44,635 bases of DNA from an uncultured Spirochaetia bacterium (GTDB lineage: Bacteria > Spirochaetota > Brachyspiria > Brachyspirales > Brachyspiraceae): assembly GCA_947038115.1 (NCBI GenBank), contig CAMQVF010000008.1, positions 1 to 44,635 on the forward strand. The letters run 5' to 3'. Position 1 is the stretch's first letter, and each line of letters starts with the position of its first letter. The notes beneath the pieces are model-generated. The model saw only the letters and a list, made by a program, of their open reading frames with translations. It did no database searches and was not told the DNA's origin. The position numbers were made by a program, and so were the translations under genes. Positions 1,122 to 12,716 of this stretch are shown one piece after another.

Positions 1122-3143
1122 CTAAAATTTCCCTCTGATGCCAACATACCATTCACGCCCAGGCCCTGGAAAGTCTTCGGCTATATTATATTTTGCATCT
1201 AATATATTTCTCACCCCACCCTCAATAGTTAGATATTCGATAAATGTCATACTCGCTGTAATATCGAATGTGTAATATCCATCTATAGAAGCACCACTGG
1301 TATAATCTGTTGATAATGGTGAAGTATAATTAGCTAAAAAATTAAGCCTACCACTAAATATGCCATTAACGTCTCCATCATATATGTATGAAAGGACAGC
1401 GTTTACTGCATGTTCTGGTATAAACGGGGCTCTAAAAATAACGGAACTGTCTATTTGTTTTCCGTCTGCCATAAATTGATATGTGTAGTTTGCAGAAAGT
1501 GATATACTAGATAATGCCACTTGTATTGGAATATTTATCGATAAAGCAGTATCGATACCTTGAGAAATATATTCGCTTATATTTTCCACTTCATAATCAT
1601 CCCCACTACCAATGTATACTATATAATCTGTATATTTTGAAGTGAAATATGCAGCCTCAAGTGTAATCATATTTATTGGAGTTATAATAAAACCAATATC
1701 ACTACCTAATAAGATGTTCTCTTTTTTTAGATCAGGATTGCTACTAGCTCCAAAAAGGTATAGCTCATTAAATGTTGGGTTTCTATAGCCTGTAGCTATA
1801 TTACCTTTAATTAAATATCTGCGTTCTCTGTCAAATGTATAAATACCTCCAATAGAATATGCGGGCTTATAAAAAGTATTATTATCACTTGTGGCATTTT
1901 TAGGATTATAAGAATCGAAAACGGCATCAAAACGAATACCTGGAGTTATTGTCAGTCTTGATACTTCGCTATTTTCATAATTAAAAAAACCTAACGAAGG
2001 TAAATACGCTATAGATACTGTATCTCTATTAACTGTACTTCCTTCATCAAGGCTAGTTCCTTTTTTTACTTCTCCTGCAATAAAATATTCATTTCTATAT
2101 AAAATTTCAGCTACATTTTGAAAAATAAATATACCATTCCCAAAATTGTCTATCCGTTCAATAGAGAAATTTGCCTCAGTTGTAAAGTTGTCAAAACTAT
2201 TATGTATAGCAGCTGTTTCTCCTGAATTTTCTACAGTTTGATAAAGTGTGTAGGCACTAAAAAAGAAATCAAATAGATCAAAAGAATAATGTTCATAAGA
2301 AATATCAGCAGTATACTTATCCGTTTTATATTCAAAATGAGCATTAGCTATATCAGAGAACGATGAGTTTCTATTTTCGTAAAAGTAATTAAATGAAGTA
2401 TGTAAAATATCGCCTTGTTCGTTAAAGCGATAGCTATTTCCTATTCTAGCATTAGCAAGCATTATCTCATTATTTTTAACTTCATCACCTGCTGTTTCGG
2501 CTAGTGCTTCGTCATATATTTTATAATTGCGTGCATTAGTTTCAATAAAACCAGATATGTAAAAATTACCTTGATTTTCTTTGCCATAATAAACATCTGT
2601 TAGTATATCCGCAATGATATTACCATAAGACCCATAATGTATACCAGCCTCAATACCAAAACCCATATCATTATCTGATACTCTATCCTTTGTTATAATG
2701 TTTATAACTCCACCCGAAGCATTCGCTCCATAGCGAGTGGCTGCAGCTCCTTTTATTATTTCAATACGTTCAATATCAGCAACATTATATTGTGATAAAT
2801 CATGAAAAAGGTTTTGTGCAGAAGATTGTCTTCGTCCATTAACTAATACTAATGTCTGCTCATATCTGTTACCTCTTATTTGAGATACTTGGGTACTTAC
2901 GCTATCACGTATGACAAGACCTGAAGTATATTTTAATACTTCAGCTACATTATTTGCACCAGTGGCTTTAATCTCATCTTCTGTGATAATAGTTGTATTT
3001 AAGGATGTTTTTTTTGGGTCAAAGATTTCTCGTTTAGCCCTAATACGAATAGTTTCTGTTTCATTAAAATTTGTATTTTCTTGTGCGTATAAGCACGAAA
3101 TTGTGATAAGTAAATAAGCACATGCTAAAATCTTAACTCTCAT
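1122..3143 (-). CDS. btuB: TonB-dependent outer-membrane receptor, probable cobalamin transporter (BtuB-like)
   Basis: 673 aa. It has a signal peptide ending near LYAQ, a TonB-box-like ETIRIRA close to the mature N-terminus, and a plug domain (about residues 45-155) with the family signatures VNGRR and IERIEIIKGAAATRYG.ASGGVINIIT. A long beta-barrel follows and ends in a terminal phenylalanine (YVGIRGKF), as outer-membrane barrels usually do. The start is ATG at 3143 with AAAGGGG six bases upstream. The substrate is inferred from the cobalamin riboswitch in its leader, not from the barrel sequence; corrinoids or cobinamide are equally possible. Energy would come from a TonB-ExbB-ExbD complex. 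An exbD gene lies at 27391-27798, but no tonB or exbB is visible in this window. Confidence 0.88.
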   Translation of the reverse strand: MRVKILACAYLLITISCLYAQENTNFNETETIRIRAKREIFDPKKTSLNTTIITEDEIKATGANNVAEVLKYTSGLVIRDSVSTQVSQIRGNRYEQTLVLVNGRRQSSAQNLFHDLSQYNVADIERIEIIKGAAATRYGANASGGVINIITKDRVSDNDMGFGIEAGIHYGSYGNIIADILTDVYYGKENQGNFYISGFIETNARNYKIYDEALAETAGDEVKNNEIMLANARIGNSYRFNEQGDILHTSFNYFYENRNSSFSDIANAHFEYKTDKYTADISYEHYSFDLFDFFFSAYTLYQTVENSGETAAIHNSFDNFTTEANFSIERIDNFGNGIFIFQNVAEILYRNEYFIAGEVKKGTSLDEGSTVNRDTVSIAYLPSLGFFNYENSEVSRLTITPGIRFDAVFDSYNPKNATSDNNTFYKPAYSIGGIYTFDRERRYLIKGNIATGYRNPTFNELYLFGASSNPDLKKENILLGSDIGFIITPINMITLEAAYFTSKYTDYIVYIGSGDDYEVENISEYISQGIDTALSINIPIQVALSSISLSANYTYQFMADGKQIDSSVIFRAPFIPEHAVNAVLSYIYDGDVNGIFSGRLNFLANYTSPLSTDYTSGASIDGYYTFDITASMTFIEYLTIEGGVRNILDAKYNIAEDFPGPGREWYVGIRGKF

Positions 3144-3261: not shown

Positions 3262-3445
3262 TATTTTAGAAATAGATTTATCTAGTATCCCGGCTACGGC
3301 TATCTACTAACATTACCTTCTCACTCTTTTTAGAGCAATGGTCACTTTTATTAATATAGTAAAAATAAAAGTACAATGTGTTCGCTACCGATTACGGTGA
3401 CGGGCTCGCACAGGAATCTCACCTGTTTCCTTTCAAAATCTGTAT
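3262..3445 (-). ncRNA. Cobalamin (AdoCbl-type) riboswitch aptamer
   Basis: Read on the minus strand, the leader of the TonB receptor carries the class landmarks in order: AGGAAACAGGTGAGATTCCT (compare AGGGAA..GGUG.AAUUCC), then GAGCCCGTCACCGT (the B12-box-like CCCGCCACUG segment) directly followed by AATCGGTAGCGAAC, a long variable region, and AGCCGGGATACTAG (compare AGCCAGGAUACC). Gene context (outer-membrane receptor) agrees. Riboswitches of this class bind a cobalamin and lower expression of uptake genes. Exact 5' and 3' limits are estimated. Confidence 0.87.
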
Positions 3446-3471
3446 AATGTCTAAAAACTCTTATGCTATTA

Positions 3472-3499
3472 AGTCTATTTAATATTTAGCTTTTGTCAA
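3472..3499 (-). promoter_or_regulatory. Promoter of the riboswitch-btuB transcript
   Basis: TTGACA (3499-3494) and TAGACT (3477-3472) are separated by 16 bases on the minus strand, placing the start near 3465, about 20 bases before the aptamer. Confidence 0.55.
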
Positions 3500-10243: not shown

Positions 10244-10269
10244 TAAAAAAATCCGCTTTGCCGCAAGCG
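10244..10269 (-). terminator. Intrinsic terminator of the structured RNA
   Basis: On the minus strand CGCTT-GCGGCA-AAGCG is followed by GATTTTTTTAT. The 3' arm also belongs to the 10-bp closing stem with the RNA's 5' end, so the two structures are mutually exclusive. LepA transcripts arriving from the other side would read through the A-rich complement. Confidence 0.7.
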
Positions 10270-10433
10270 ACATAGGTGCACCCGACTGTTAAATCAGGGG
10301 GGCTCTCTCAGAATGTGACCTTGATTTCTCTAAACCGTAAACGGCGAGCCTATCATTAACATTCATATGCAAGATCCCAAAAAGGTAAGTTATATTGGTG
10401 CAAGAATGTAATCGCATTCACGTGCAAAGCAGA
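10245..10433 (-). ncRNA. Structured small RNA gene, 6S-RNA-like candidate
   Basis: About 189 nt on the minus strand, bounded by its own promoter (10467-10440) and a terminator hairpin plus seven T (10269-10245). The 5' segment TCTGCTTTGC (10433-10424) pairs with GCAAAGCGGA at the 3' end over 10 bp, so the ends close the molecule. Nested pairs inside include TGCACC/GGTGCA, GGG-TCTT with GAGA-CCC, GAATGT/ACATTC and an apical CCGTTTACGG. This long closed rod with internal loops and this length resemble 6S RNA, the sigma70-polymerase decoy. I see no SRP GGAAG, RNase P or tmRNA signature, so those are unlikely. The 6S identity is tentative; the existence of an RNA gene is better supported. Confidence 0.62.
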
Positions 10434-10439
10434 GTCCTA

Positions 10440-10467
10440 ACTATAATCTTTTTTTATTTATTGTCAA
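10440..10467 (-). promoter_or_regulatory. Strong promoter of the structured RNA
   Basis: On the minus strand TTGACA (10467-10462), 16-base spacer, TATAGT (10445-10440), giving a start near 10433-10436. Confidence 0.7.
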
Positions 10468-10506: not shown

Positions 10507-10535
10507 TTGACAATTTCTTTTAATGCATCTATACT
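10507..10535 (+). promoter_or_regulatory. Consensus sigma70 promoter without a following gene
   Basis: TTGACA (10507-10512), exact 17-base spacer, TATACT (10530-10535). Transcription would start near 10542 and run toward the hairpin at 10628-10663 and then antisense to the lipoprotein gene. Two inverted repeats lie in between: TATATA-TTCA-TATATA and the near-palindrome ACATCATGATTGT. No credible open reading frame follows. Confidence 0.5.
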
Positions 10536-10666: not shown

Positions 10667-11524
10667 TTAATAAAGCTCATACGAAATACTATATTCATAC
10701 GAATCATTGTATTTCTCATCTTCAAGCAGAAGTACTATATATAAAGTTTCATTTTTGCTCCATGTGCTTTTTATATTATATTTAGATTGAGTTTTAAGTA
10801 AATAATTTTCATCGAATAATAAAATTCTCGCATTCTGTTTATATTTTAATTCGATTTTTATATTTGAGTCTATATCTGTTGTATTTTCTATTTTGAATAT
10901 GTCGATATCTATAATATTATTCGAGTCTAAATTAGTTTTTATAGCTTCGTCAATATATATTATATCCGAATATTTTATAAAGTTACCCTTGTAAATATTA
11001 TCAAAATTTATGATTTTTTGTGCAGTGCTAAAAAAATTATTATTTTCTATTTCTTTATTTTCTATTAAATCATTATAAAAATTAAATTTAATGCTATATT
11101 CTAATGATAAATCTTTATTATTAGATGATTTTATGGAAATATGATAGCTAGAATTTTCTTTTAATTTATAGATTGGTGATGAAATATTCCCGAAATAGTT
11201 TTTAATATACTCACTTTTTAAAGTAGCTATTACTTTTTTATCTTCTATTATTTCTATTATTACATCATCTTTTTTACTTTTAGCATTAAAATTAAAAGAT
11301 ATAAATAATGAATTATCAGAATTTATCATATAGTAATCGACATCTGAGACATCTTCAGTATTGCTAATTGTGGCATTTATCGTGGATGATTTGTCAATAA
11401 ACTGAGCATATTCTATTCTAGAATTGGGCTCAATTTCTTTTATAGAACTTTTATTTTCTGAATAATCATTTGCACATGAAGCAATAAAAATTATTATAAA
11501 ACATAAAATTAAATATTTACTCAT
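10667..11524 (-). CDS. Lipoprotein with two PPC-like beta domains
   Basis: 285 aa from ATG at 11524. That start gives a clean lipoprotein signal (MSKYLILCF..., lipobox IASC at about residue 17) and overlaps the pncB stop in ATGAGTAA; the longer frame back to 11587 would add a non-signal-like extension. After the cysteine, EIEPNSR.EYAQ...INATIS...DVSDVDYYMI matches the pattern of bacterial pre-peptidase C-terminal (PPC) domains. A second similar unit starts near residue 160 (EIENNNFFSTAQKI ... DIDIFKIEN). PPC domains are usually appended to secreted proteases; here they stand alone on a lipid anchor. It is the last gene of the operon starting at 13853. Function is unknown; a surface or periplasmic binding role is a guess. 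Confidence 0.85.
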   Translation of the reverse strand: MSKYLILCFIIIFIASCANDYSENKSSIKEIEPNSRIEYAQFIDKSSTINATISNTEDVSDVDYYMINSDNSLFISFNFNAKSKKDDVIIEIIEDKKVIATLKSEYIKNYFGNISSPIYKLKENSSYHISIKSSNNKDLSLEYSIKFNFYNDLIENKEIENNNFFSTAQKIINFDNIYKGNFIKYSDIIYIDEAIKTNLDSNNIIDIDIFKIENTTDIDSNIKIELKYKQNARILLFDENYLLKTQSKYNIKSTWSKNETLYIVLLLEDEKYNDSYEYSISYELY

Positions 11525-12716
11525 TACTAACTTTTTTAAGATAGTGTAAAAAATCTTCATCTTCGCAAATAGTTTTACCTTCATCATCCGATATTTTGGC
11601 TACTGGTCTTCCATTGACTGATTGTAGTTTCATAACAATATTTAATGGAGAGAGAATAGGTTTAAAGTCATTCATTAAATATGTGCCTATTCCAAATGTA
11701 ACATTAGTTTTTCCGCTAAATGCAGAGTGGATATCTAATGCTTTATCAAAGTCAAGGCTATCACTAAATAATAAAATTTTAGTTTTAGGATCAATTCTCA
11801 TCGACTTATAATGATCGATTATTATATTACCCCATTTAATTGGATCCCCCGAGTCATGCCTTACGCCATCATATAATTTAGCAAAATAGATGTCAAAATC
11901 TTTTAAGAATTTCTTAGTGCCTAATGTGTCAGAAAGGGCAATACCTAAATCGCCTCTATATTCATTAATCCAAGCTTGAAGCATATATTTTTGACTTTCT
12001 CCAAGTTGTACGCCTGATAAAGCTTGACCAACTTGATAATATTCATGGGCATTTGTTCCAACGGCTAAGAGGTCATATTTTTTTGCTAAATATACATTAC
12101 TAGTACCTATAAGAGAATTGTTAGGAGATTTAGATTTTAATATTTCAACAGCTTCACTATGCCAATCAAATGAAAATCTTCTTCTAGTTCCAAATTCGGA
12201 AAACATAAAATCATCATATTTATCACATGTTTTTAATAATTTATCATTAATTTTTGAAAGTAAATTATTCTTCCCTTGAGCATATACTTCTTTTGCAATA
12301 TTATCTCTTTTTATAATATAGTCATAGTATATCTCGCTTATCATTGCGAGTATTGGAATCTCCCATAAAATGGTTTGATACCATGGGCCTTCAATTTGTA
12401 AGTCTAGTTTATTATCTATTAATTGAACTTTAACATGCTCCCTTAATGGGCGATATAGTTTTAAGAATTCAATATAATCTCTTTTTATAAATCTTAATGA
12501 CGCTAAATATTCCAACTCGTTAGTATTAAAAGATAAACTGCAAAAATTATCTATTTGATTCAAAAGCTCATCATATAATGTTTTATTCCACTCAAGCGGA
12601 TTTCTTGATGTAAATACATATTTAACCCAAACATCGGAAAACTGCCTAATGGCCGATTGTTGCATTGTAAATTTATATAAATCTGTATCGAGTAAACTAT
12701 TAATAATTTGTTTCAT
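11517..12716 (-). CDS. pncB: Nicotinate phosphoribosyltransferase
   Basis: 399 aa, similar to the E. coli enzyme (400 aa). It makes nicotinate mononucleotide from nicotinate and PRPP in the Preiss-Handler route to NAD, coupled to ATP hydrolysis. Signatures are LLDTDLYKFTMQQ at the N-terminus, EFGTRRRFSFDWH (about 168-180), GTSNVYLAKKY and GTNAHEYYQ (about 204-226), and DSGDPIKWG (about 288). The start ATG at 12716 overlaps the stop of the AtpZ-like gene (ATGA), and its stop overlaps the next lipoprotein gene, so the three are translationally coupled. Confidence 0.96.
   Translation of the reverse strand: MKQIINSLLDTDLYKFTMQQSAIRQFSDVWVKYVFTSRNPLEWNKTLYDELLNQIDNFCSLSFNTNELEYLASLRFIKRDYIEFLKLYRPLREHVKVQLIDNKLDLQIEGPWYQTILWEIPILAMISEIYYDYIIKRDNIAKEVYAQGKNNLLSKINDKLLKTCDKYDDFMFSEFGTRRRFSFDWHSEAVEILKSKSPNNSLIGTSNVYLAKKYDLLAVGTNAHEYYQVGQALSGVQLGESQKYMLQAWINEYRGDLGIALSDTLGTKKFLKDFDIYFAKLYDGVRHDSGDPIKWGNIIIDHYKSMRIDPKTKILLFSDSLDFDKALDIHSAFSGKTNVTFGIGTYLMNDFKPILSPLNIVMKLQSVNGRPVAKISDDEGKTICEDEDFLHYLKKVSNE

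What the first reader, a model, noticed from the sequence alone, without database searches (positions are those of the whole stretch)
10245..10433. Unannotated structured RNA gene with own promoter, terminator and pairing ends
Seen directly: consensus-like promoter (TTGACA-16-TATAGT), about 189 nt, a 10-bp stem joining the 5' and 3' ends, nested internal pairs, and a hairpin plus seven T. Known: 6S RNA has this length, closed ends and long rod shape. Inferred: 6S-like RNA, or an undescribed RNA if no model fits. The 3' arm is shared by the closing stem and the terminator hairpin, giving two exclusive folds that could couple folding with release.
Basis: partly seen in the sequence, partly recalled or inferred. 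Interest (0 to 1): 0.65.

Follow-up and report, generated by a model that had tools for sequence, protein, structure and literature searches.

The report
6S RNA gene of a Brachyspira relative
This is the gene for 6S RNA, a well-known small RNA that most bacteria use to park their RNA polymerase, in a relative of the gut spirochaete Brachyspira; it is an ordinary member of a known family that standard annotation may overlook here because its sequence has drifted just below the accepted score.

Summary
There is a TTGACA-16-TATAGT promoter, a ~190-nt RNA whose ends pair over 10 bp, and an ending in T7. The RNA is 6S (SsrS). Rfam RF00013 matches full length at 45.7 bits (gathering score 46.4; whole-genome E = 3.5e-8; the only hit in the genome). 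All 29 genomes held from the same family carry one homologue; one is cut by a contig end. One of these genomes is Brachyspira pilosicoli P43/6/78, so the family is Brachyspiraceae. On 27 distinct sequences, 13 of 47 pairs show compensatory changes and 98.4% of cells pair. The -35 hexamer is invariant. A model built only from Brachyspiraceae finds the accepted 6S locus in an order relative (E = 7.8e-14) and 4 of 8 more distant spirochaete loci. A different, already known switch is conserved: the central-bubble hairpin competing with the neighbouring helix, as in pRNA-induced 6S release. The modest news is that no Brachyspira species tested reaches Rfam's cut-off. New member of a known kind; low interest.

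The parts
10462..10467 (-). -35 hexamer TTGACA
   Evidence: invariant in all 28 aligned homologues
10440..10445 (-). -10 hexamer TATAGT (spacer 16; relatives mostly have TATATT or TATAGT at spacing 17)
10245..10438 (-). 6S RNA gene (SsrS); predicted 5' end between about 10438 and 10433, 3' end in the T-run
   Evidence: RF00013 match 10438-10246, 45.7 bits; Brachyspiraceae model R1 10435-10245, 179 bits (this sequence was in the model)
10424..10433 (-). closing stem, 5' strand UCUGCUUUGC
   Evidence: fold; helix 1 of the consensus has two pairs with compensatory changes
10252..10261 (-). closing stem, 3' strand GCAAAGCGGA
10397..10402 (-). helix next to the central bubble (P2 / downstream helix), 5' strand UGCACC; inferred to be the template for product RNA
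   Evidence: helix 5: 96.9% paired, two covarying pairs; template role inferred from E. coli and B. subtilis 6S (PMC8876501)
10277..10282 (-). helix next to the central bubble (P2), 3' strand GGUGCA
10379..10396 (-). 5' side of the central bubble, AAUAUAACUUACCUUUUU, predicted unpaired
   Evidence: unpaired in the window fold and in the alignment consensus
10281..10298 (-). 3' central-bubble hairpin CCUGAU-UUAACA-GUCGGG; its outer two pairs use the GG of the P2 3' strand, so the full hairpin and P2 exclude each other
   Evidence: 95.7% of cells paired over 27 sequences, G-C to A-U change kept
10310..10365 (-). apical arm and loop, containing the near-invariant segments AATGATAGGCTCGCC and GAGAAATCAAGGTCA
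   Evidence: helix 7 has four covarying pairs; helices 8-10 100% paired
10245..10251 (-). T-run (seven T) at the 3' end

Best explanation
The locus is the single-copy ssrS gene of a Brachyspiraceae bacterium. It is transcribed from its own sigma-70-type promoter on the minus strand, tail to tail with lepA. The ~190-nt RNA folds into the 6S rod: closing stem, central bubble, apical arm. Shown here: promoter sequence, fold, covariation, family membership by model. Inferred from the family: the RNA mimics a melted promoter and occupies the RNA polymerase holoenzyme carrying the primary sigma factor, mostly when growth slows. When nutrients return, the polymerase copies a short product RNA from the 5' side of the bubble into the neighbouring helix P2. 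That opens P2, lets the 3' central-bubble hairpin (CCUGAU...GUCGGG) reach its full 6 bp, and releases the polymerase.
For: RF00013 full-length match, 45.7 bits, E = 2.6e-8 in 301 bases and 3.5e-8 over the whole genome with no second hit. The sister species passes the cut-off at 48.6 bits. 28 homologues in the family share promoter and RNA. 13 of 47 pairs have compensatory changes, 44 such cells against 6.8 in shuffles, and slid structures pair only 31-44% of cells. A model built only from Brachyspiraceae hits the same place as RF00013 in an order relative (G030, 69.6 bits, E = 7.8e-14; RF00013 gives 69 bits there), and full length in four other accepted spirochaete 6S loci (L031, L029, L032, L036). 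The conserved 3' central-bubble hairpin is a known part of 6S in lactic acid bacteria and B. subtilis. The genome has a 581-aa open frame with a strong sigma-70 region 3 match (1.7e-24), which fits a primary sigma factor.
Against: The score is 0.7 bits under Rfam's gathering score, and most genus Brachyspira copies tested score 28-42 bits; RF00013 did not list L020, L023 or L028 at E <= 0.1. The Brachyspiraceae model missed four of the eight distant accepted 6S loci (L030, L033, L034, L035). In the best single-sequence folds of some relatives (L002, L011) the apical arm is drawn differently. No transcript, polymerase binding or product RNA has been measured.
Confidence: 0.95

Rival explanations
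1. A 6S look-alike that works differently: an Ms1-like RNA that binds the core polymerase without sigma, or another rod-shaped RNA of the same size.
For: Ms1 of Actinobacteria is structurally related to 6S yet binds core polymerase (PMC9130861, abstract), so shape alone does not settle the partner.
Against: RF00013, a sequence-and-structure model of 6S, matches over its full length, and no other plausible family appears down to E = 10. The reciprocal model search meets accepted spirochaete 6S loci.
Confidence: 0.03
2. A 6S RNA that additionally uses a closing-stem / terminator-hairpin switch.
For: In this window the 3' arm can form either the closing stem or a terminator-like hairpin followed by T7.
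Against: Hairpin not conserved (64.4% of cells paired; 25 of 27 broken at one pair, 21 of 27 at another). Pair probability ~0 in the full-length fold. A hairpin formed early and then displaced is simply how an intrinsic terminator at the end of such an RNA would behave.
Confidence: 0.04
3. A protein-coding or antisense / 3'-UTR element of lepA rather than an RNA gene.
For: It lies 20 bases beyond the lepA stop codon, on the opposite strand.
Against: Open frames inside are short and interrupted. Homologues differ by insertions and deletions of 1, 2 and 7 bases. LepA adjacency is kept only in the same genus; none of the other 26 loci shows lepA within the fetched flanks, while promoter and RNA are kept.
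Confidence: 0.01

Closest known systems
6S RNA / SsrS (Rfam RF00013)
   Same: Length, rod shape, closing stem, central bubble with 3' hairpin, apical arm, stand-alone single-copy gene; full-length model match
   Different: Slightly below Rfam's gathering score (45.7 against 46.4); genus Brachyspira copies lower still (28-42 bits among those listed)
Borrelia burgdorferi 6S RNA (Bb6S)
   Same: Spirochaete 6S, predicted in 2005, seen by RNA-seq and induced by the stringent response (PMC6041397)
   Different: A different spirochaete lineage; not aligned here
B. subtilis 6S-1 and E. coli 6S release switches (PMC8876501)
   Same: A 3' central-bubble hairpin that can grow when helix P2 is unwound by product RNA, as in E. 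coli; part of it is already predicted in the free RNA, as in B. subtilis
   Different: Here six conserved pairs, against nine in E. coli; whether a 'central bubble collapse helix' forms was not tested
Ms1 RNA of Actinobacteria
   Same: Structurally related to 6S (PMC9130861)
   Different: Binds core polymerase; no such family appears among the model matches here

Membership tests
6S RNA (RF00013) | Score at or above the curated Rfam gathering score | tested here: inconclusive
   45.7 against 46.4 bits, so strictly not reached. E-value significant (3.5e-8 per genome); sister species passes with 48.6
6S RNA (RF00013) | Homology to accepted 6S loci shown in the reverse direction | tested here: met
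   R1, built only from Brachyspiraceae, hits the RF00013 locus in G030 (E = 7.8e-14) and in L029, L031, L032, L036; four other loci missed
6S RNA (RF00013) | ~200 nt with closing stem, central bubble and apical arm supported by covariation | tested here: met
   13 of 47 pairs with compensatory change; 98.4% of cells paired
6S RNA (RF00013) | Hairpin in the 3' side of the central bubble (seen in several lineages) | tested here: met
   Six pairs, 95.7% of cells paired
6S RNA (RF00013) | Stand-alone gene with own promoter | tested here: met
   TTGACA invariant in 28 homologues with differing neighbours; sequence evidence only
6S RNA (RF00013) | Binds RNA polymerase holoenzyme with the primary sigma factor | not testable with these tools
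   Needs co-immunoprecipitation or gel shift
6S RNA (RF00013) | Serves as template for product RNA and is released by it | not testable with these tools
   Needs in vitro transcription or small-RNA sequencing
   64.4% of cells paired, no more than in shuffles

The most novel reading that the evidence does not exclude
Brachyspiraceae 6S is a divergent subtype. Its apical arm has long, nearly invariant segments in loops and bulges as well as stems (AATGATAGGCTCGCC and GAGAAATCAAGGTCA). This could mean a lineage-specific contact with polymerase, sigma or another partner, beyond the usual promoter mimicry.
Probability: 0.12. Interest if true: 0.4.

Novelty: new member of a known kind. Interest (0 to 1): 0.18.

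Why it matters
It fills a likely annotation gap. 6S RNA is a global regulator of transcription, and in Brachyspira, which includes gut pathogens of pigs and people, the standard model cut-off misses it in every species tested. The alignment and model made here would let it be annotated. It does not change what is known about how 6S works.

Tried and rejected
Plus-strand gene: fold ordinary (z = -1.05), and promoter and T-run belong to the minus strand. Closing-stem / terminator switch: not conserved. Coding gene or lepA-linked element: rejected. Apparent absence of the gene in family member G002: an assembly artefact, since R1 finds a copy cut by a contig end. A LepA search of named genomes returned no Brachyspira, so the family was named from the chromosome length of G021 (2,555,556 bp) matching B. 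pilosicoli P43/6/78 (PMC3587939). Literature: no held paper has both '6S RNA' and 'Brachyspira'. The two surveys most likely to list it (Barrick 2005, Wehner 2014) are not held, so an earlier listing cannot be excluded.

Full report
What was checked. The finding names 10245-10433 without a strand. The promoter (TTGACA 10467-10462, 16-nt spacer, TATAGT 10445-10440) and the T-run (10251-10245) both lie on the minus strand. The minus-strand RNA folds at -54.6 kcal/mol, z = -2.64 against 200 dinucleotide shuffles, one of which folds as well. The plus strand is unremarkable (z = -1.05). The 10-bp stem joining the ends is there, with pair probabilities of 0.875 to 1.0.

What it is. With default thresholds Rfam reports only a tRNA and a cobalamin riboswitch in the window. 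With a relaxed threshold, RF00013 (6S/SsrS) matches 10438-10246 on the minus strand over its full length at 45.7 bits, just below the gathering score of 46.4. Over the whole 1.77-Mb genome the match has E = 3.5e-8 and is the only one. The sister species in the same genus passes the cut-off at 48.6 bits.

Relatives. A nucleotide search finds one homologue in each of 28 of the 29 genomes held from this family, the window's own included. A covariance model built from them also finds a copy, cut by a contig end, in the remaining one. One of these genomes has a single contig of 2,555,556 bp, exactly the published chromosome length of Brachyspira pilosicoli P43/6/78 (PMC3587939), so the family is Brachyspiraceae. 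In the alignment the -35 hexamer is invariant and the -10 well conserved. LepA is next door only in the two genomes of the window's genus; within the fetched flanks none of the other 26 loci has it. The gene is therefore a unit of its own.

Structure test. On 27 distinct sequences, RNAalifold gives 47 pairs, of which 98.4% of cells are standard pairs. 13 pairs show changes on both sides; 44 cells do so, against 6.8 in shuffles. Sliding the 3' partners by 1-3 columns drops pairing to 31-44%. The closing stem has two covarying pairs and the apical helix four. The caveat is that the structure was derived from the same alignment.

Reverse test. The model R1, made without any Rfam sequence, scores the RF00013 locus of an order relative (G030) at 69.6 bits, E = 7.8e-14. 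It also matches accepted spirochaete 6S loci L031, L029, L032 and L036 full length, E from 3e-12 to 1.6e-5. It misses L030, L033, L034 and L035. Both directions together make 6S membership secure, although the strict Rfam cut-off is missed by 0.7 bits.

The proposed switch. The terminator-like hairpin that would share the 3' arm with the closing stem is not kept in relatives: 25 of 27 sequences break its fourth pair and 21 of 27 its fifth; overall 64.4% of cells pair, no better than shuffles. In the full-length fold its probability is effectively zero. Another pair of exclusive structures is conserved: the hairpin in the 3' side of the central bubble (10298-10281, 95.7% of cells paired), whose outer pairs use two G of the helix P2 (10402-10397 with 10282-10277). 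In E. coli, unwinding of P2 by product RNA lets such a hairpin extend and releases the polymerase; in B. subtilis a smaller hairpin is already present in the free RNA (PMC8876501). By analogy this is the likely release step here; that is inference.

Working. Shown: promoter sequence, transcript-like anatomy, fold supported by covariation, 6S homology, and a likely primary sigma factor in the genome. Inferred from the family: binding to the sigma-bearing polymerase, sequestration in slow growth, product-RNA synthesis and release. In the spirochaete Borrelia burgdorferi, 6S is upregulated by the stringent response during nutrient stress (PMC6041397).

Novelty. The family is known. No genome of the Brachyspira genus (26 species genomes, handles G003-G028) reaches the Rfam cut-off (best 42.4 bits), so routine annotation probably omits the gene. 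A B. hyodysenteriae genome paper lists only three ncRNAs without naming them in the passage read (PMC4991709). No held paper joins '6S RNA' and Brachyspira, but the main surveys of 6S distribution are not held, so prior listing cannot be excluded.

Noticed in passing
window 3263-3473 (-): Cobalamin riboswitch (RF00174, 49.2 bits) upstream of the minus-strand open frame 1122-3143.
   Followed up: no
most Brachyspira loci (for example L009-L019), apical loop of the 6S homologue: Most Brachyspira copies have a self-complementary apical insert (TATCGCGATA) that this genome lacks; it could lengthen the apical hairpin or allow loop-loop pairing between two molecules.
   Followed up: no
window 10310-10365 (-) and homologues: Apical arm segments AATGATAGGCTCGCC and GAGAAATCAAGGTCA are nearly invariant across the family, including unpaired positions, unlike much of the rest of the RNA.
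   Followed up: partly
window 10667-11587 (-): 306-aa open frame with no Pfam match beside the 6S gene, not found in the flanks of any homologous locus; its N-terminus looks like a lipoprotein signal (FIASCAND).
   Followed up: no
window 10507-10535 (+): A second promoter-like site, TTGACA-17-TATACT, on the plus strand just upstream of the 6S promoter and pointing away from it; no plus-strand open frame of 80 aa or more follows before 12708.
   Followed up: no
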